Origin: Clostridia bacterium
GTDB taxonomy: Bacteria > Bacillota > Clostridia > Christensenellales > Borkfalkiaceae
Reading direction: 5' to 3'
NCBI GenBank assembly: GCA_017616925.1
Contig: JAFZXG010000136.1
Location: 1 to 12,533, forward strand
Length of the DNA stretch: 12,533 nt
Shown: one piece after another, positions 1,613 to 9,186 of the stretch
Layout of the letters: the number at the start of each line of letters is the position of its first letter
Numbering within the stretch: position 1 is the first letter of the stretch
The notes under the pieces: model-generated
Seen by the model: the letters and a program-made list of their open reading frames with translations, nothing else
The model's database searches: none
What the model was told of the DNA's origin: nothing
Translations under genes and position numbers: made by a program

Positions 1613-1652
1613 AAGGGGCTGCCGCGTTAAGCGGCAACCCCTTTTCGTTTTT
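1613..1652 (+). terminator. Intrinsic terminator of the DeoR-family gene
   Basis: AAGGGG (1613-1618) and TGCCGC (1620-1625) pair with GCGGCA (1631-1636) and CCCCTT (1638-1643), with one C/A mismatch and a 5-nt loop. A T-rich tail, TTTTCGTTTTT, follows. On the minus strand the same hairpin is followed by TTAATTTAAT, so it may also stop the convergent four-gene operon. Confidence 0.88.
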
Positions 1653-1696: not shown

Positions 1697-2986
1697 TTAT
1701 TCGGAGAATTGTCCGTACTTCCCGATGGCTCCATCTATCGTGATTTCGCCTTTTCCAACCTTGTACGACGCGATCCTTATCTGAACGGTGAGTTTATCCT
1801 TTATACCGAGCACTTCCGGAGAAATGGTGCGTTCGGACGGGATCCGACCGAAAGGAGCGTAAACCGAGTCAAACGGCATATCGGTGGTCGGCGTTACCAA
1901 ACGCTTGACGGACGCTATTTTGTTCAGTTCCTTTTTCGAGATCAGAAAACGCATAAATTCGTTTGTCATATCCAGATTGTCGCAATCCTTGTTAACGGAA
2001 AACTCTATGGAAGGACTGTCGATAAAATATCCGCCATCTTCCGTCATCGGAATAGGTGCGAACGTGTAGTCGAACGGCGCTTTGGTGAACGCCTCGGACT
2101 GACTTTCACGCTTTTTAGTTCCGGATACGGTGTCGCCGGCGCAGATCATCATCGGCACGTCGCCTTCGAAAAAGCGCAAAATCACACCGTCATAGTTGTT
2201 CCCAATATTAGCACACTCTTCGAGATCGACGCAGTCGTTATCGATCAACTGCTTCACCGCATTAAGCGCGGGGCGCATATATTCCCCCGCCTCGGAGTCA
2301 AGGTCGTTGGCTAGCGCAAGCGCATCAGGATTTTCGGCAAGTGCGGATAAAAATAACGGGTAAGCAACCGTGTACATGAAACAACTGGACGATGTACGAC
2401 TGTACCCCATCATAGGACTCGAGTAACCTTTATTGCGGAAGGCTTCGCAAACGGACATCAACTCCGTCAGCGTTTTAGGAACGCTGAGACCTTCTTTTTT
2501 GAACAGGTTTTCGTTCACCAGCATACCGTAAGTTCTGGAGAAAACCGGTACCATCAGCACACGACCTTCCGCATCGTGATTGACAAGACTCGGGCGGATG
2601 CAGTCAAGATCCAACTTCAGAGCGGGATCGGAAAGGTCTTCCATATGAGTTAGTACCTGATTGTAATCAGGGTTTCCGATCATCCAGGTATATGAGAAGA
2701 AAATATTCGGTTTATCGTTTCCTTCTAATACCGTGCGAAGAGTTTTTTGATAGTTGTCCGTTTTCGCGTAACTTAGCCGAACGTTCGGGTAAAACTTGTT
2801 GAATCTGTCGAATTCGGCTTCCAACGCCTCGAAATTACCATAATCTCCGATTACGTTGATCTCACAACTCGTGGTCGTATCGAGGGTCGGTTTGAATTCG
2901 ACGTCGGTTTCACCGGTCGTAAACTTACAAGCGGCAAATGGAAAAACGATCAGTACCGCAAGTATCAGGCATAAAAATTTTTTCAC
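1697..2986 (-). CDS. Extracellular solute-binding lipoprotein (ABC family-1 type), last gene of a signalling operon
   Basis: Lipid-anchored substrate-binding protein of the carbohydrate-type family, on the outer face of the membrane. Residues 1-20 are a lipoprotein signal peptide ending in the lipobox FAAC, with Cys20 as the lipidated residue. The mature part shows the SBP pattern: a first strand (INVIGDYGN, about 43-51), a PNVRLSYAKT segment, NIFFSYTW and a hinge region with VPVFSRTYGMLVNENLFKKEG; the total of 429 residues is normal. Translation starts at GTG 2986, which overlaps the kinase stop codon as GTGA; AAGGAG inside the kinase gene lies 8 bases upstream. Tight coupling to a sensor kinase and the absence of any permease or ATPase gene suggest a ligand-sensing co-receptor rather than an importer. 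The ligand, probably a sugar or oligosaccharide, is not known. It could still serve a transporter encoded elsewhere. Confidence 0.88.
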   Translation of the reverse strand: MKKFLCLILAVLIVFPFAACKFTTGETDVEFKPTLDTTTSCEINVIGDYGNFEALEAEFDRFNKFYPNVRLSYAKTDNYQKTLRTVLEGNDKPNIFFSYTWMIGNPDYNQVLTHMEDLSDPALKLDLDCIRPSLVNHDAEGRVLMVPVFSRTYGMLVNENLFKKEGLSVPKTLTELMSVCEAFRNKGYSSPMMGYSRTSSSCFMYTVAYPLFLSALAENPDALALANDLDSEAGEYMRPALNAVKQLIDNDCVDLEECANIGNNYDGVILRFFEGDVPMMICAGDTVSGTKKRESQSEAFTKAPFDYTFAPIPMTEDGGYFIDSPSIEFSVNKDCDNLDMTNEFMRFLISKKELNKIASVKRLVTPTTDMPFDSVYAPFGRIPSERTISPEVLGIKDKLTVQIRIASYKVGKGEITIDGAIGKYGQFSE

Positions 2987-5520
2987 TGTTTATTCTCCTT
3001 TATTTTCCGTATTTCTTTGATCACGAATTTAATATCTATCGGCTTGGCGACGTGTCCGTTCATACCGGCTTTTAAACACTCCGCCACGTTCTCCGAAAAC
3101 GCGTCCGCGGTCATGGCTATGATCGGCAAGTTGGCTTTTTTTGCGTTTTCGAACTTACGGATCGTTCTCGTGGCGTCAAGACCGTTCATCTCGGGCATCT
3201 GGATATCCATAAAGATAAGGTCGAATTCGTCGTCTTTTGCGTTACTCAGTCTTTCCACGCAGACCTTGCCGTTTACGGCGCGTTCGGAAGTAATGCCGAA
3301 CATTTCGAGCAAGGCGTGGATAATCTCCCAGTTGATCTCGTTGTCTTCGGCGATAAGGATATTTAAGCCCGCGATATCCGAATAATCGTCTTCGGGTTCG
3401 ATCGCCTTGGCTTCCACGCCGCGAAGTTCGTTGATCGCGGTAAACAGAGTGGACGGGAACAGCGGTTTACCCATAAATCCGTTGACTCCCGCGTCCTTCG
3501 CGGCAGTCTCGATGTCCGACAGGTCGTAAGCGGACGTCATAATGATCGGGATCGTCGCACCGAATTCTCCGCGGATCTTTTTTGCGGTTTCGACGCCGTC
3601 TAAACCTTTCATCTTCCAGTCGAGAATTATAACGTCGAAGTTCTTGCCTGTCGCCTGTCTGTTCCCGATAAGATCTATCGCTTCCTGCCCGCTGTGCGCC
3701 TTTTCGGGACGACCGCCCAAAGACTCAAGCGTCTCCGCGACGGTTTCAAGCAAAACGTCATCGTCGTCGGCGATCAGGATATCGATCGGATCAAGGCGCA
3801 TCTTTTCGGGCTGTCTGTCGGCAACGCGAAGGTCAAGCGTGATCGTGAAAGTAGTTCCGACTCCGACTTTACTCTGACAATCGATAGTGCCTTCCATTAA
3901 GTCGACCATCTTCTTGGTGATGGCAAGCCCAAGCCCCGTACCCTGAATACTGTTGACTCGCGAATCGGTCTGGCGCGAGAACGGTTGATACATGATCTCC
4001 ATAAACTCGGGACTCATACCCATACCGTTATCCGCCACCGTGAAAGTCAGTCTGACGTACCCCGCCTTTTCACTCTTTTCTTCCTTTAAGTCCACGCCGA
4101 TCGTTCCACCCGCCTGCGTGTATTTGATGGCGTTTGACAGGATATTGATATAGATCTGATTAAGCCGCATCTGGTCGGCGAAAAGGTATTCCTGTTCTAT
4201 ATGGTTGATGCGGATATTGAAATCGATCGTCTTTTCTTTGATCATCGGTTGCGAGATGTTGACGAGATTTTCAATGGAATCGACGATGGAAAAGGTTATC
4301 GGATTCAGCGAAAGTTTGCCGCTTTCCACTTTCGAAATATCGAGAATATCGTTGATAAGCGTAAGAAGGTGGCTGCTTGCAAGAGATATTTTCCGCAGAC
4401 TGTCGCTGAGAGATTTTCGGTCTTCGATCTTCTGTTCGGCTATGGTAGTCAGTCCTATAATGGCGTTCATCGGGGTACGGATATCGTGCGACATGGTCGA
4501 AAGGAAGTCCGTTTTCGCCCTGTTTGCCGACTCGGCTTCTTTTGCCATCTGTTGCAGTCTCTTGTTGATAAGCCGCATGTAAATGGTATTGACGGCGAGT
4601 AGAACCAGCAATCCGACCGTAATGACGCCGATCAGTATCCAGTTTTCCGTTTTGGAAGACAGCGCCGAAACGGGAATATAGTTCAGCATCGCCCACCCGT
4701 TAGCGACTTTGATAGGCGTGTACGCAATAAGGCAAGGCTGACCCTTTGAGTCGTTCATGGTAAAACTCGCGGTCGCCGAGATCACGTTGTCTTTAAGTTC
4801 CTGCAGCGCCGCGCCGCCGATCGTGTTATAGGACTTGTAAAACTCGTAGAAGTTGTTGTTCTTGAAGGAATTGCCCTTTATAATGTAGTCGCCGTCGGAA
4901 TTGATAACGGACAGTTCGGCGTTTTCGAATTCCGATTGCGGAAACGCCCATTTCTCTTTAAGGTCCGAAATGGGTATGATCCTTAAAAGCAAGGCGTTCC
5001 GCGTCTCGTCAAGAGTATCGTCGTAGACAGTGATTTTGTTGATAAACGCCAAGGACTGTTCACCGTTCATGGGGTTGGTGTAAGCCCTGGACATATTGAT
5101 ATCTTCGCCTATATCGGCGATCCATTCCATATTCCCGAAAATATCGACCTGATTATAAGACACCTCATAGTTATCGGTGTTGATTATGTTAGATCTGGTC
5201 GACAGCCCGCGCAAAGTGTCCGTATAGATCAAGTGAGCGGACGTATTCTGTAAAACGTGGGAAGCACGGATAAACTCGGTAGCGTCGGACAGCGTCATAT
5301 TCCGACCGACGATATAGTTCGCCCATACGTCGCAAATACTCTGTTCTCCCTGCAGATAATTCTCCGTAACGTGTTCCATCGCAACGGTCATGTCTTCAAA
5401 TCTGACGACTTGATTGCGATAGTCTTTTTCGTGGTCAAAATACGAATATAAAACAACAAAGGTCAGAATACCGACGATGATCAGGGCGTTTAATACGGAA
5501 AGCCATATTTTCTTTATCAT
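2983..5520 (-). CDS. Membrane hybrid histidine kinase with two receiver domains
   Basis: Sensor kinase of 845 residues. A transmembrane helix (about 6-27) leads into an extracytoplasmic sensor of roughly 265 residues, possibly Cache-like (for example NSDGDYIIKG at 207-216), and a second helix (about 294-315) returns inside. A short linker precedes the HisKA domain with phosphoacceptor His345 (STMSHDIRTPMN). The ATPase domain has the N-box Asn463, DNG (497-499) and GTGLGLA (527-533). Receiver 1 (about 578-700) has phospho-Asp634 (ILDWKM), Thr662 and Lys685; receiver 2 (about 719-840) has Asp772 (FMDIQMP), Thr804 and Lys826. All key residues are present. There is no Hpt domain inside; a separate Hpt protein is encoded 33 bp upstream. 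The ATG at 5520 has only a weak ribosome binding site (ACGAGA). The 3' end overlaps the binding-lipoprotein gene, its likely partner. Confidence 0.94.
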   Translation of the reverse strand: MIKKIWLSVLNALIIVGILTFVVLYSYFDHEKDYRNQVVRFEDMTVAMEHVTENYLQGEQSICDVWANYIVGRNMTLSDATEFIRASHVLQNTSAHLIYTDTLRGLSTRSNIINTDNYEVSYNQVDIFGNMEWIADIGEDINMSRAYTNPMNGEQSLAFINKITVYDDTLDETRNALLLRIIPISDLKEKWAFPQSEFENAELSVINSDGDYIIKGNSFKNNNFYEFYKSYNTIGGAALQELKDNVISATASFTMNDSKGQPCLIAYTPIKVANGWAMLNYIPVSALSSKTENWILIGVITVGLLVLLAVNTIYMRLINKRLQQMAKEAESANRAKTDFLSTMSHDIRTPMNAIIGLTTIAEQKIEDRKSLSDSLRKISLASSHLLTLINDILDISKVESGKLSLNPITFSIVDSIENLVNISQPMIKEKTIDFNIRINHIEQEYLFADQMRLNQIYINILSNAIKYTQAGGTIGVDLKEEKSEKAGYVRLTFTVADNGMGMSPEFMEIMYQPFSRQTDSRVNSIQGTGLGLAITKKMVDLMEGTIDCQSKVGVGTTFTITLDLRVADRQPEKMRLDPIDILIADDDDVLLETVAETLESLGGRPEKAHSGQEAIDLIGNRQATGKNFDVIILDWKMKGLDGVETAKKIRGEFGATIPIIMTSAYDLSDIETAAKDAGVNGFMGKPLFPSTLFTAINELRGVEAKAIEPEDDYSDIAGLNILIAEDNEINWEIIHALLEMFGITSERAVNGKVCVERLSNAKDDEFDLIFMDIQMPEMNGLDATRTIRKFENAKKANLPIIAMTADAFSENVAECLKAGMNGHVAKPIDIKFVIKEIRKIKENKQ

Positions 5521-5553
5521 TTCGCTATTCTCGTTCTTATTTTTTTATACGGT

Positions 5554-5910
5554 TCAACGATCCGCGTCCTGCGCCGCAAGCGCGGAAAGTTCCTTCGTCT
5601 TTTGCAGGATCTCGGCATACAGCGTTTCGTAGTCGCCCGGCGTTTTGCGGCGAAGCAGTTCGGTAAGCGCCGAAACAGGTTCATAAATCGGCGTCAGCGA
5701 TAAGTTCCCCGCCACGCCCTTTAATTTGTGCGCCTCTTCGAACGCCTTGTCCAGATCTCCTTCTTTTAATGCCTCGCCGAGAGCGGCAACGGAAAAACCG
5801 TTCACCGCCATTACGACCAAACGCAAATAAAACGTTTCGTTTTGCATACACCGCGTCAGTCCCGATTCGACGTCCGTGCCGTATTCTCTCAATTTTTCCA
5901 AGGTTAACAT
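5554..5910 (-). CDS. Stand-alone Hpt phosphotransfer protein
   Basis: A 118-residue helical protein that carries phosphate between receiver domains in a phosphorelay, in the cytoplasm. The Hpt signature AHKLKGVAGNL places the phosphorylated histidine at residue 61, followed by the usual small-residue turn and a further helix pair. The length is typical of single-domain Hpt proteins. GGGAG lies 9 bases before the ATG at 5910. It sits between a phosphodiesterase with a receiver (46 bp upstream) and a hybrid kinase with two receivers (33 bp downstream), in the same orientation. Its obvious role is to take phosphate from a kinase receiver and pass it to the receiver of the phosphodiesterase. This routing is inferred from position and domain logic. 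Confidence 0.9.
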   Translation of the reverse strand: MLTLEKLREYGTDVESGLTRCMQNETFYLRLVVMAVNGFSVAALGEALKEGDLDKAFEEAHKLKGVAGNLSLTPIYEPVSALTELLRRKTPGDYETLYAEILQKTKELSALAAQDADR

Positions 5911-5956
5911 ATCACCGTACTCCCAAAAAAATTATTCGGATCGCCGTACCCGTGCG

Positions 5957-7687
5957 TCAAGGGTTTCGGTCTCCGCTTTTACTTGCCACACCTTTCTTTT
6001 CGATCATGAATTTCTCAAATTCCTCAGCAGGAAGCGGACGCGAAAAATAATAGCCTTGTATTACGTCGCAGCCCATCGCTTTAAGCGACGATACCTGCTC
6101 GGAAGTCTCGACGCCTTCCGCAATGGTCGTCAACTCAAACGATTTGGCAAGATGAATCATTGCTTCGAGCAATTGCGCGCCCTTCTCCCCCTTAAACGCG
6201 TTGCGGATGAACAGCATATCGAGTTTCATCGCGTCGATCGGCACGCAGGACAGCATATTAAGAGAAGAATAACCCGTACCGAAGTCGTCCATTTCGATAT
6301 AAAAACCGAGTTCGCGAAGGTGTCTTACCTTATCAACGATCTGTTCCGCGTTTTCGGTGTAAGCGGATTCCGTGATCTCCAAAAGCAGTTCTTTGTTGGT
6401 CAATTTATGAGTTTTGACGATACTTAAAAGTTTGTCCTCGAGTTCGGGATCGTAAAGATCCACGCGGGATACGTTTATGGAAACGGGCAAGGAAATACCA
6501 ATCCGATCACGCCAATCGCGGATCTGCGCGGCGACTTCGTCCCATACGTAATGGTCAAGCGCCTGTATAAGCCCGTTCTTTTCAAACAGCGGAATAAACA
6601 GACCGGGGCTGACGAGTCCGAGAGTGGGATGTTTCCAGCGCACCAGCGCTTCCGCGCTGTTTAAGATGGGTTCCTGCCCGCGCATATCGAATTTGGGCTG
6701 ATAATAGACCGCGAACTGTTTTTCGCGGATCGCCGTCGTGAAATCTTCTATAAGTTGCGCGTTAAGCAGTTCCGCTTCGTGCAAAGAGTGATCGTAAAAC
6801 CCGATGGGCTTTGTGAAATTATCTTTTACGAGATCCGCCGCCATTTTCGCGCGGTCAAATCTGCGCTCTATATCAAGTGATTTATCGACGTCGGCATAGA
6901 TACCCATTCTCAATTTCACGCGCAAATCCTTGTTTTCCCCCGTACCCAGCGGGACGGAAAGGGCTTCCAGTATCGAATTATAATGCGAGACGTGCGGACA
7001 GTAAAACATAAAAGTATCCGCTTCGCTACGGCTGACTATACCCCCGTTTTTGTTGACGATGGTAAGAGATTCGTCGGCGATGTGTTTTAAGATCGCGTCA
7101 CCGTAAGATTTGCCGTAGCGGTCGTTGATTATATGAAAACGGTTAATATCAAGCACGATCGCGTCAGTCGTAATGTTTTTATTATACAGGTCGAATTGAT
7201 CGGCGTAGTGATAGAAAAATTCCTTGTTGTAAAGTCCAGTCAACTGATCGCGTTCGGTCAATTTCAGGATAACCCTGTCCTCCGACAATTCGATCGTCCG
7301 CCTGATCCTTGCGAGAATAACTTCCTGTCTCGGATACGGTTTTGAAATGAAATCGATCGCACCGATCGTCAAACACTCGACTTCGGCGTCGCTATCCGCG
7401 GTCATGACGATAACGGGAATACGCAGAAAGGTCGGATCTTTTCTTATGCGGCGCAAAACGTCGAGACCGCTGATACCCGGAAGATTCAAGTCTAAAAGAA
7501 CGATGCTTAAAGTCTCGTGCTTTGCGCTTAATATTTCAAGCGCCTGTTCGCCCGATTCGGCAACGATTACGTCGTAAAAATCTCCTATGGCGAGTTTCAT
7601 CAATTCCTGATTGACGACTTCGTCCTCTACGAGTAAAACGCACCGTTTCTTGTCGAAAATGCGAAATTTTGTTTCACGATCATCCAT
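5957..7687 (-). CDS. Response-regulator c-di-GMP phosphodiesterase (REC-GGDEF*-EAL)
   Basis: Cytoplasmic enzyme predicted to hydrolyse cyclic di-GMP under control of phosphorylation. Numbered from ATG 7687 it has 576 residues. A receiver (about 16-135) has phospho-Asp66 (VLLDLNLPG), a Thr in VMTAD and Lys in SKPYP. A GGDEF domain (about 150-300) has EADTF (222-226) in place of GGDEF, so it is probably not a cyclase. An EAL domain (about 315-565) keeps EAL (346-348), NVSR, LEITES, DDFGTG (467-472), the MKLD lysine, AEGVET and QGYYFSRP, so it is probably active. The start is decided by GGAGG at 7700-7696, 8 bases before ATG 7687; an in-frame TTG at 7720 has no such site. It is the first gene of the four-gene operon and its likely output. 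Confidence 0.93.
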   Translation of the reverse strand: MDDRETKFRIFDKKRCVLLVEDEVVNQELMKLAIGDFYDVIVAESGEQALEILSAKHETLSIVLLDLNLPGISGLDVLRRIRKDPTFLRIPVIVMTADSDAEVECLTIGAIDFISKPYPRQEVILARIRRTIELSEDRVILKLTERDQLTGLYNKEFFYHYADQFDLYNKNITTDAIVLDINRFHIINDRYGKSYGDAILKHIADESLTIVNKNGGIVSRSEADTFMFYCPHVSHYNSILEALSVPLGTGENKDLRVKLRMGIYADVDKSLDIERRFDRAKMAADLVKDNFTKPIGFYDHSLHEAELLNAQLIEDFTTAIREKQFAVYYQPKFDMRGQEPILNSAEALVRWKHPTLGLVSPGLFIPLFEKNGLIQALDHYVWDEVAAQIRDWRDRIGISLPVSINVSRVDLYDPELEDKLLSIVKTHKLTNKELLLEITESAYTENAEQIVDKVRHLRELGFYIEMDDFGTGYSSLNMLSCVPIDAMKLDMLFIRNAFKGEKGAQLLEAMIHLAKSFELTTIAEGVETSEQVSSLKAMGCDVIQGYYFSRPLPAEEFEKFMIEKKGVASKSGDRNP

Positions 7688-7894: not shown

Positions 7895-7921
7895 ATTTAA
7901 AATCCGAGAATTTCCGCAAAG

Positions 7922-7949
7922 AAAAAAGCGCAGGGATCTGCGCTTTTTT
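7922..7949. terminator. Bidirectional intrinsic terminator after the leucine-rich-repeat gene
   Basis: GCGCAG (7928-7933) pairs with CTGCGC (7938-7943) around GGAT, flanked by six A on one side and six T on the other. It therefore has a proper T-tract on both strands. It lies 28 bases past the stop codon of the minus-strand leucine-rich-repeat gene. Confidence 0.92.
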
Positions 7950-7976
7950 CGTTTTATTTATTTTGTGAATTATCCG

Positions 7977-9122
7977 TTATAAGCAGTCCTTAAAGCAGTT
8001 GCCGTTCGCGTTATAGTTGCATTTACCTTCGACCGTCGCCGCGGTAAGCGCGGTGCAGTAAGCGAACCCGTAATTGCCGAGATCGACCGTCGCCGCGGTA
8101 ACGGCTGAAAAATCGACCGTGGTCAGACTCTTGCAAAGCAAGAACGCGCCTTCGCCTATTTCGGTAAGGTTTGCGGAAAGAGTTATCGACTCTAACGCGC
8201 TTGCGTTTTTGGCGGCTATCGGGTTAGCGGAAGAATCTATCTCGCTTGCGAAAGCGTACTCGCCTATCTTCGTTACGCCCGCGGGAAGAACGATATTCTC
8301 GATACTCGTAGCATAGAACGCGTGCGATTTTATCTCGGCAAGTGCCGACGCCGCGCCGAAGGAAAGTCCCTTTAAGTTCTTGCAGTTATAGAACGCGTAA
8401 GCGTCTATACTTTCCACGGTATCCGCGACCGTAACCGCGCTTACGCCCGAATTTGCGAAGGCATACTCGCCTATTTCCGTCACCTTGTCGCCGAGAACCA
8501 CGGTCGCAACGTCGTTAAGGCCGTTAAACGCGTACATGGGCAGGCGGTAGTTTTCCGCGGGATTTATCGTGATTTTGGTAAGCGAAACGGGAAGATAGTA
8601 AACGCTGCTCTTTTCCGCCGCGTAGAATAAAGTTTCGGTTTTACCTTCGGCGTATTCGGTCTTACCGAAAACGTATCCTATAGATCTCTTTTCTTCTACC
8701 GCTTTGTTTTCTGCGGAACCCGTCTGGTTAAAAGACGCGTCCCCCGTCGCGTTTGCGCCGACGAAAGGCAGAACGATCTCTTCTAACGCCTTCATACCCG
8801 CGAATGCGCCCGCCTCGATCTCGGTAACGGTAGCGGGAACGACGAGTTTCTTGATCGAAGAATCGCCGTTGAACGCACCGGATCTGATCTTGCCGACGGT
8901 CTTGCCCTGTTCGGTCGCGATCGCGCCTATATCGAGCGTGCCGTTCACTACGGAAACGCCGTCGTCGACGAATTTCGCGACTTTATACGAATCGCTGTCG
9001 GCGGATTTTGTCAGAATAAGTCCTTTCTTTCCGGAATCGGTGCTGCCCGAGCGAGCGAAAGCCGAAACCGCCATAATTGCGGCGAGCAGTCCGAAAAGCA
9101 ATATCTTTAAGGTTTTTTTCAT
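7977..9122 (-). CDS. Secreted BspA-type leucine-rich-repeat protein
   Basis: Exported protein of 381 residues, probably for binding or adhesion outside the cell. The first 23 residues are a Sec signal peptide (MKKTLKILL followed by a hydrophobic stretch to SAFA). Repeats of the LRR_5 type then recur, with the pattern IGEYAFxxxxxLxxIxLPxxVTxI: clear copies begin near residues 78, 105, 213, 236, 262, 285 and 318. The start is ATG 9122, with AAAGGAG 5 bases upstream; an in-frame ATG at 9167 lies upstream of the predicted transcription start and is rejected. The protein stops inside a repeat (NCFKDCL) and has no LPXTG, SLH or other anchor. A 19-nt direct repeat (8029-8047 and 8083-8101) encodes the repeated LTAATVE/VTAATVD segments. 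Function beyond binding cannot be told. Confidence 0.88.
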   Translation of the reverse strand: MKKTLKILLFGLLAAIMAVSAFARSGSTDSGKKGLILTKSADSDSYKVAKFVDDGVSVVNGTLDIGAIATEQGKTVGKIRSGAFNGDSSIKKLVVPATVTEIEAGAFAGMKALEEIVLPFVGANATGDASFNQTGSAENKAVEEKRSIGYVFGKTEYAEGKTETLFYAAEKSSVYYLPVSLTKITINPAENYRLPMYAFNGLNDVATVVLGDKVTEIGEYAFANSGVSAVTVADTVESIDAYAFYNCKNLKGLSFGAASALAEIKSHAFYATSIENIVLPAGVTKIGEYAFASEIDSSANPIAAKNASALESITLSANLTEIGEGAFLLCKSLTTVDFSAVTAATVDLGNYGFAYCTALTAATVEGKCNYNANGNCFKDCL

Positions 9123-9157
9123 AAAAACTCCTTTGAAAGCCCCTTTATACTTCAAAT

Positions 9158-9186
9158 AGTTTAACATTTATAAACCCGTTTGTCAA
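9158..9186 (-). promoter_or_regulatory. σA promoter of the leucine-rich-repeat gene
   Basis: A perfect TTGACA (9186-9181) is followed by 17 bp and TAAACT (9163-9158) on the minus strand. Initiation near 9151 leaves a leader of about 29 nt before ATG 9122, so this gene is transcribed separately from the peptidase gene upstream of it. Confidence 0.85.

What the first reader, a model, noticed from the sequence alone, without database searches (positions are those of the whole stretch)
1697..7687. Four-gene operon that appears to link an extracellular binding lipoprotein to c-di-GMP breakdown through a full phosphorelay
The sequence shows, in one direction with gaps of 46 bp, 33 bp and -4 bp, a REC-GGDEF*-EAL protein, a lone Hpt, a membrane kinase with two receivers, and a solute-binding lipoprotein with no transporter genes. 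All phosphotransfer residues are present (kinase His345, Asp634, Asp772; Hpt His61; EAL-protein Asp66). Every step from ligand to second messenger is therefore encoded together: lipoprotein, kinase, receiver, Hpt, receiver of the phosphodiesterase. Binding-protein co-receptors (LuxP-LuxQ, ChvE-VirA) and phosphorelays are known separately; a transporter-free operon that ends in a c-di-GMP phosphodiesterase is unusual and may be a distinct nutrient-sensing module.
Basis: partly seen in the sequence, partly recalled or inferred. Interest (0 to 1): 0.75.

Follow-up and report, generated by a model that had tools for sequence, protein, structure and literature searches.

The report
Binding-protein kinase controlling c-di-GMP breakdown
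A gut-type bacterium carries a lipid-anchored binding protein paired with a membrane sensor kinase, and the genes around it suggest that the pair controls breakdown of the lifestyle messenger c-di-GMP; the same pair recurs in many rumen and gut bacteria beside one of two unrelated c-di-GMP-degrading enzymes, but its ligand is unknown.

Summary
In detail: four codirectional genes (gaps 46, 33, -4 bp) encode REC-GGDEF*-EAL, Hpt, a hybrid kinase with two receivers and a solute-binding lipoprotein, with all phosphotransfer residues. The kinase sensor is a dCache domain. Two wirings exist. Type A (window): Hpt and EAL protein within five genes in 17 of 61 loci. Type B (mostly Lachnospiraceae): kinase with its own Hpt, REC-HD-GYP within five genes in 16 of 22. 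EAL and HD-GYP are unrelated c-di-GMP phosphodiesterases, so c-di-GMP breakdown is the best-supported output. In 391 class genomes, window left out, all 8 with the lipoprotein match the EAL protein (one without receiver) versus 13 of 382 others. Ligand, docking, phosphotransfer and sign of regulation are unproven. New variant of SBP-assisted kinases.

The parts
5957..7687 (-). Response regulator REC - degenerate GGDEF (SEADTF) - EAL, 576 aa; receiver aspartate Asp66; predicted c-di-GMP phosphodiesterase
   Evidence: motifs EAL, INVS, LEITES, MDDFGTGYSS, MKLD, AEGVET, QGYYF present, and kept in 19 of 19 aligned proteins, window included
5554..5910 (-). Stand-alone Hpt protein, 118 aa, phospho-acceptor His61
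   Evidence: PF01627 2e-9; His61, Lys64, Gly65 invariant in 11 aligned sequences
2983..5520 (-). Hybrid sensor kinase, 845 aa: dCache sensor - HisKA (His345) - HATPase_c - REC1 (Asp634) - REC2 (Asp772)
4651..5436 (-). dCache_1-like extracellular sensor domain of the kinase (residues about 29-290)
   Evidence: Pfam dCache_1 in 11 of 61 homologues at E<=0.1, best 1e-7, not in the window protein itself
1697..2986 (-). Family-1 solute-binding lipoprotein, 429 aa, GTG start, lipobox Cys20, overlapping the kinase gene by 4 bp
   Evidence: PF01547 4.6e-20; homologues 71-77% identical over 95-100% of the length
7921..7950 (.). Terminator-like hairpin upstream of the operon
   Evidence: pattern match only; the number of such sites is no more than in shuffles
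1615..1641 (.). GC-rich hairpin between the end of the operon and the convergent deoR-type gene; read by eye, one mismatch, not listed by the scan
   Evidence: Sequence

Best explanation
A solute-binding lipoprotein, kept for sensing and not for transport, docks on the dCache sensor domain of its partner hybrid kinase. Ligand occupancy changes kinase activity. Phosphate moves His345 -> receiver Asp (634 or 772) -> free Hpt His61 -> Asp66 of the REC-GGDEF*-EAL protein and changes its c-di-GMP phosphodiesterase activity, so an extracellular solute sets the cell's c-di-GMP level. Shown: gene order, domains, residues, no neighbouring permease, conserved pairing of kinase and lipoprotein, co-occurrence with the Hpt and EAL protein across genomes, and a second lineage in which the same lipoprotein family and a related sensor lie beside REC-HD-GYP. 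Inferred: physical docking, order of phosphotransfer, direction of regulation, physiological outcome. The Hpt-EAL pair is probably a shared output that other hybrid kinases (with SBP_bac_3, dCache or PAS sensors) also feed. Working guess on sign, little better than even: phosphorylation activates the phosphodiesterase; AsrK-AsrR of Vibrio furnissii works the other way.
For: Kinase gene adjacent to the lipoprotein gene in 84 of 87 loci, the other 3 ending at a contig edge; 4-bp overlap in 41 of 61 type-A loci. No permease adjacent; 6 permease-like ORFs in 1.36 Mb, nearest 1.65 kb away. Sensor is a dCache fold. Within five genes, type A has an EAL protein of the window's kind in 20 and the Hpt in 18 of 61 loci; type B has REC-HD-GYP in 16 of 22; no crossing above my score threshold (Fisher p 1e-10 on non-independent loci). 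In 36 chosen genomes without the side-by-side arrangement, 35 encode an EAL homologue at E<=1e-60 (34 covering the receiver) and 35 an Hpt match, 30 of them at E<=1e-38; the Hpt lies beside the EAL protein in 15 of 30 such loci fetched. Class-wide, window left out: 8 of 8 genomes with the lipoprotein match the EAL protein vs 13 of 382 without (receiver covered: 7 of 8 vs 11 of 382, p 1e-9); close Hpt in 6 of 8 vs 6 of 382, the 2 without it being type-B genomes. EAL motifs kept in 19 of 19 proteins aligned and HD/GYP motifs in 16 of 16. The host has four other GGDEF matches.
Against: 41 of 61 type-A loci have no such EAL protein within five genes; among 32 with at least 5.5 kb upstream and 3 kb downstream, 23 lack one. 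Hpt-EAL pairs lie beside other hybrid kinases and occur in 6 class genomes without the lipoprotein. The two type-B class genomes also match the EAL protein although their neighbour is HD-GYP, so part of the genome-wide association may only reflect genomes rich in signalling proteins. Three of 19 type-B loci with enough downstream sequence lack HD-GYP. Below the score threshold there are exceptions: a 703-aa protein with a 31% EAL match near the type-B L036, and a 39% HD-GYP match near the type-A L076. The kinase dCache could bind a ligand itself. The SBP structure prediction failed (pLDDT 40), so no pocket or interface was examined. In some searches only 3-4 candidates a genome were scored, and genomes are related, though the association holds at genus level.
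Confidence: 0.68

Rival explanations
1. The sensing branch is real but the output is different or variable: the pair normally signals to other response regulators, and its position next to Hpt-EAL in the window is one of several interchangeable wirings.
For: 41 of 61 type-A loci have no EAL protein of this kind within five genes; 8 of 11 fetched Hpt-EAL loci sit beside other hybrid kinases, of which eight scanned carry SBP_bac_3 (3), weak dCache_1 (2), PAS (1) or no named sensor (2); some loci add further hybrid kinases (L011, L024).
Against: 35 of 36 chosen unlinked genomes match the EAL protein and 30 of 36 have a close Hpt; association across genomes; type B has another c-di-GMP phosphodiesterase nearby in 16 of 22 loci.
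Confidence: 0.19
2. The lipoprotein is an ordinary ABC importer component that uses a permease encoded elsewhere and merely shares an operon with a sensor kinase.
For: It is a family-1 SBP, and the genome has 17 permease matches, 16 over the Pfam cut-off; SBPs working with distant permeases are known (recalled).
Against: Next to a kinase wherever the flank is present and never beside a permease in the loci fetched; the family is discrete: class genomes score E 2.6e-142 or better or do not pass 1e-60, and only 2 of 398 phylum genomes pass 1e-30.
Confidence: 0.08
3. The kinase senses the signal through its own dCache domain and the lipoprotein only raises sensitivity or modulates it.
For: The sensor is a dCache fold and its closest solved relatives bind amino acids directly. 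In CuaDSR the kinase responds to cellobiose without the SBP, less efficiently (PMC10384115, abstract and passages). AsrK is a dCache kinase that binds AI-2 directly (PMC11796354, abstract and passages).
Against: The lipoprotein is more conserved than the sensor domain (median identity 74% vs 62% over 75 pairs), which is hard to square with a minor role.
Confidence: 0.25

Closest known systems
LuxP-LuxQ-LuxU-LuxO (Vibrio)
   Same: Binding protein, hybrid kinase, separate Hpt, response regulator: same topology (recalled). LuxQ and TorS models are among the best NCBIfam hits to the kinase, far below their cut-offs
   Different: SBP family (LuxP profile PF13407 as named in PMC9540692, passages; here PF01547); two receivers in the kinase; output is REC-GGDEF*-EAL instead of a sigma-54 activator (recalled)
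NspS-MbaA (Vibrio cholerae)
   Same: A periplasmic binding protein controls c-di-GMP synthesis and breakdown (PMC8967002, passages)
   Different: MbaA is itself the membrane GGDEF-EAL enzyme, with no kinase or phosphorelay; polyamine ligands
CuaD-CuaS-CuaR (Ruminiclostridium cellulolyticum), with XylFII-LytS as its cited model
   Same: Clostridial SBP lipoprotein encoded next to, and binding, its sensor kinase (PMC10384115, abstract and passages)
   Different: The kinase-regulator pair turns on uptake genes; no Hpt or c-di-GMP enzyme in the passages seen
Roc system (Pseudomonas): RocS1/RocS2 to RocR
   Same: Kinases with SBP_bac_3 periplasmic domains, receivers and Hpt pass signals to regulators that include the REC-EAL phosphodiesterase RocR (PMC12051241, abstract and passages)
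   Different: SBP domain is part of the kinase, not a separate lipoprotein; proteobacterial; also feeds DNA-binding regulators
AsrK-AsrR (Vibrio furnissii)
   Same: dCache histidine kinase controlling a phosphodiesterase response regulator (PMC11796354, abstract and passages)
   Different: No SBP in the passages seen; AI-2 binds the dCache directly, and less phosphorylation means more phosphodiesterase activity

Membership tests
SBP-assisted (three-component) sensor kinase systems | SBP gene conserved next to a sensor kinase with an extracellular domain | tested here: met
   84 of 87 loci, 3 undetermined at contig ends; dCache sensor
SBP-assisted (three-component) sensor kinase systems | No dedicated permease beside the SBP | tested here: met
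   No adjacent permease in 89 fetched loci, some cut short by contig ends (profile from the window genome's own 17 matches, sensitivity elsewhere not calibrated)
SBP-assisted (three-component) sensor kinase systems | Physical SBP-sensor complex | not testable with these tools
   No complex prediction; SBP monomer model failed
CUT1 ABC-transporter substrate-binding protein | Encoded with MalF/MalG-type permeases | tested here: not met
LuxPQ-LuxU-LuxO | LuxP-type binding protein (PF13407) | tested here: not met
   Only PF01547 and PF13416 match at E<=0.001
LuxPQ-LuxU-LuxO | Sigma-54 activator output | tested here: not met
   Output protein is REC-GGDEF*-EAL
NspS-MbaA | Membrane-bound GGDEF-EAL receptor | tested here: not met
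   The EAL protein has a receiver at residues 17-124 and no sensor domain in Pfam
EAL c-di-GMP phosphodiesterase with receiver | Complete EAL catalytic motifs and receiver aspartate | tested here: met
   (which residues count is recalled)
EAL c-di-GMP phosphodiesterase with receiver | Measured hydrolysis of c-di-GMP | not testable with these tools
   Needs enzymology
Active GGDEF diguanylate cyclase | GG(D/E)EF signature | tested here: not met
   SEADTF in the window; no GG(D/E)EF at this position in 19 of 19 aligned proteins
dCache_1 sensor domain | Two stacked Cache modules on a long N-terminal helix | tested here: met

The most novel reading that the evidence does not exclude
A discrete, patchily and probably horizontally spread sensory family of gut and rumen bacteria in which one strongly conserved, cysteine-rich, transport-free binding lipoprotein was coupled at least twice, by exchange between kinase lineages, to unrelated c-di-GMP phosphodiesterases (EAL via a free Hpt, HD-GYP via a kinase-borne Hpt). 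The conservation of the lipoprotein across families would then mean that all these bacteria read one common extracellular compound, possibly an interspecies signal and not a species-specific nutrient.
Probability: 0.25. Interest if true: 0.8.

Novelty: new variant of a known kind. Interest (0 to 1): 0.6.

Why it matters
SBP-assisted kinases and c-di-GMP phosphodiesterases are each well known, but a separate binding lipoprotein feeding a phosphorelay that ends in c-di-GMP hydrolysis was not seen in the listings of ten paper searches (CC-licensed PMC only). Two unrelated phosphodiesterases beside the same input make the proposed output testable and give a ready comparison. If one compound is read by many rumen and gut bacteria, identifying it could show what tells them to leave or stay on a surface or fibre.

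Tried and rejected
Phage-borne module: a scan of viral contigs gave 105 pattern matches and no relative. Defence system: PADLOC gave no match for three proteins and weak matches over common domains for the kinase. Rfam and tRNA scans of the window found nothing. Sugar specificity: solved relatives are sugar-binding proteins at about E 1e-9 to 1e-10, aligned over part of the length; NCBIfam sugar models are far below cut-off; the SBP model failed, so no ligand is claimed. LuxQ is not among the 50 Foldseek or 50 VIA rows shown for the sensor, which does not exclude it. A first permease profile from a motif-matching subset found one ORF and was replaced by one from all 17 own-genome matches. Direct co-evolution of lipoprotein and sensor was not shown: over 75 pairs the distance correlation is weak (r 0.31), because kinases split into types A and B and lipoproteins hardly do; within type A (54) it is 0.69, against 0.49 for the kinase core. 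A review of clostridial orphan kinases and phosphotransfer proteins (PMC11210211, passages) held no mention of c-di-GMP or binding proteins. My notebook gives 16 of 30 for Hpt beside EAL; a recount gives 15, used here.
Full report
OBSERVATION. The four genes exist as described on the minus strand of the window: REC-GGDEF*-EAL 5957-7687, Hpt 5554-5910, hybrid kinase 2983-5520, lipoprotein 1697-2986, with gaps of 46, 33 and -4 bp. Pfam gives the stated domains and every stated phosphotransfer residue is present. The GGDEF signature is degenerate and the EAL motifs complete. The window lies in a 907-kb, 56% complete assembly; kinase and lipoprotein have no other copy in the part that is held (the only other match to the kinase is the receiver of the EAL protein). 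The assembly has five GGDEF matches including this one.

THE LIPOPROTEIN. The search returned 4407 homologues among 7998 scored candidates; the best 120 are listed and, the window's own apart, are 71-77% identical over 95-100% of the length. An alignment of 25 has a mean column identity of 82%. The 80 named loci kept come mostly from MAGs of rumen and gut labelled Clostridia, Lachnospiraceae, Oscillospiraceae or Erysipelotrichaceae, with a few isolates; single records are labelled Eggerthellaceae and Chloroflexi, labels that may be binning errors. Distribution is patchy: 2 of 61 genomes in the relatives search (the window's own and one of another family in the same order; 0 of 36 other same-genus genomes), 9 of 391 class genomes, 2 of 398 phylum genomes. 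Class genomes match at E 2.6e-142 or better or do not pass 1e-60, so the family is discrete. This suggests horizontal spread, but I did not test it against a species tree.

NEIGHBOURHOOD. In 83 a kinase gene is directly adjacent on the same strand, and in one more (L021) a 120-aa kinase fragment at the contig end is. The other three (L014, L066, L083) have the lipoprotein ORF within 94, 1 and 2 bases of a contig end. 61 are type A (kinase like the window's, order kinase->lipoprotein, 4-bp overlap in 41). 22 are type B (kinase most like that of L036, which has one receiver plus its own Hpt by Pfam): 20 with lipoprotein->kinase, 2 (L117, L118) with kinase->lipoprotein. A profile from the 17 permease matches of the window genome found 6 ORFs in the 89 loci (1.36 Mb); the nearest is 1.65 kb from the lipoprotein gene and none is adjacent.

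OUTPUTS. Types and neighbours were called by BLAST scores against the window's and L036's proteins. Among 61 type-A loci, 20 have an EAL protein of the window's kind within five genes (some cut by contig ends), 18 the Hpt, 17 both; none has HD-GYP above the threshold. Of 32 with at least 5.5 kb upstream and 3 kb downstream, 9 have the EAL protein. Among 22 type-B loci, 16 have REC-HD-GYP within five genes and none the EAL protein above the threshold; of 19 with at least 4.3 kb downstream, 16 have it. Below the threshold, L036 (B) has a 703-aa protein with a 31% EAL match and L076 (A) a 438-aa protein with a 39% HD-GYP match. The order EAL-Hpt-kinase-lipoprotein recurs in L112 (another family), L011, L012 and L024, and with a small ORF between in L013 and L019; the order kinase-lipoprotein-EAL-Hpt in L005, L006, L008, L039, L046 and L072. 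The 19 aligned EAL proteins (window included, split or truncated ones left out) all keep the receiver aspartate and the EAL motifs and lack GG(D/E)EF at the central position; L006 has one undetermined residue inside the DDFG stretch. The 16 HD-GYP proteins all keep HD and GYP motifs. Several EAL proteins carry a second GGDEF at the C terminus, so some may be bifunctional.

UNLINKED GENOMES. I chose 36 genomes by hand whose lipoprotein locus lacks the EAL protein and Hpt side by side; two (L055, L074) do have an EAL protein within five genes. 35 of 36 match the window's EAL protein at E<=1e-60 (34 with the receiver covered), and 35 of 36 have an Hpt match, 30 at E<=1e-38. Of 30 of these EAL loci fetched with about 1.5 kb flanks, 15 have the Hpt adjacent. 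In the 391-genome class sample the EAL protein (E<=1e-120) is in 22 genomes, including all 9 with the lipoprotein (in G282 without the receiver); the close Hpt (E<=1e-38) is in 13, including 7 of those 9. With the window left out, Fisher p is 2e-11 for the EAL protein, 5e-9 for the Hpt, 1e-8 for the EAL protein by genus and 1e-9 if the receiver must be covered (7 of 8 vs 11 of 382). Against a specific link: the two type-B genomes (G282, G371) also match the EAL protein, weaker Hpt matches (E<=1e-5) occur in 69 of 391 genomes, the tests ignore relatedness, and searches scored only a few candidates per genome.

HUB. Of 11 fetched Hpt-EAL loci from genomes with and without the lipoprotein, 8 lie next to a hybrid kinase whose sensor does not match the window's. 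Eight kinases from 7 of these loci were scanned: three carry SBP_bac_3, two a weak dCache_1, one PAS, two no named sensor. So Hpt-EAL looks like a shared output and the lipoprotein-kinase pair one of its inputs. This is inference; there are no phosphotransfer data.

EVOLUTION. Median identity within A, within B and between them is 74, 75 and 73% for lipoproteins but 70, 75 and 41% for sensors and 83, 82 and 37% for kinase cores (75 pairs). The sensor tree puts type B on one side of a fully supported branch. The lipoprotein tree needs three changes, at least two by starred branches: 18 type-B lipoproteins form a supported clade among type-A ones, L050 falls elsewhere with weak support, and L117/L118 are deep on long branches. 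The simplest reading is that lipoproteins moved between kinase types; the trees are quick searches with many weak branches, and the window's sensor is itself a long branch.

MECHANISM. The best-supported model is a transport-free co-receptor that adjusts a hybrid kinase, with a phosphorelay ending in c-di-GMP hydrolysis. Two unrelated phosphodiesterases beside the same input, each with its own way of supplying the Hpt step, are the strongest evidence on the output. Direction is open: in AsrK-AsrR less phosphorylation activates the phosphodiesterase (PMC11796354, abstract and passages).

KNOWN SYSTEMS. Precedents exist for each half: NspS-MbaA (PMC8967002, passages), CuaDSR with XylFII-LytS (PMC10384115, abstract and passages), the Roc system (PMC12051241, abstract and passages) and LuxPQ-LuxU (recalled). 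A rumen survey proposes dCache domains as AI-2 receptors (PMC9540692, abstract and passages). The listings of ten paper searches showed no description of this combination; subscription papers and preprints were not searched. I rate it a new variant of a known kind.

Noticed in passing
L023:2305-6300 and L074:2853-7229: Proteins of 1332 and 1459 aa fuse an amino-acid permease (AA_permease_2) to GGDEF, REC and EAL domains; open frames of 1429-1508 aa around similar matches appear in other genomes but were not scanned.
   Followed up: partly
window 1697-2986: The exported lipoprotein has eight cysteines after the lipobox (41, 129, 180, 202, 252, 258, 282, 335), seven of them conserved in 89% or more of 75 sequences, and a single tryptophan (76%); this seems unusual for a sugar-binding protein of an anaerobe and may mean disulfides or a metal.
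   Followed up: no
L036:14128-14898: Type-B loci often carry an about 257-aa protein with a C-terminal receiver and an N-terminal half without Pfam match, between kinase and HD-GYP protein; role unknown.
   Followed up: partly
L012 and L021: One assembly (RUG13574) holds two copies of the lipoprotein on different contigs, 72% and 71% identical to the window's.
   Followed up: no
L011:13522-17274, L179:5483-9244, L180:8068-11772: Large hybrid kinases with fused SBP_bac_3 domains beside lipoprotein or Hpt-EAL loci, reminiscent of Roc-type sensors.
   Followed up: partly
window 7977-9167: BspA-type leucine-rich repeat protein upstream of the operon, a possible surface protein; any link to c-di-GMP is unknown.
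   Followed up: no
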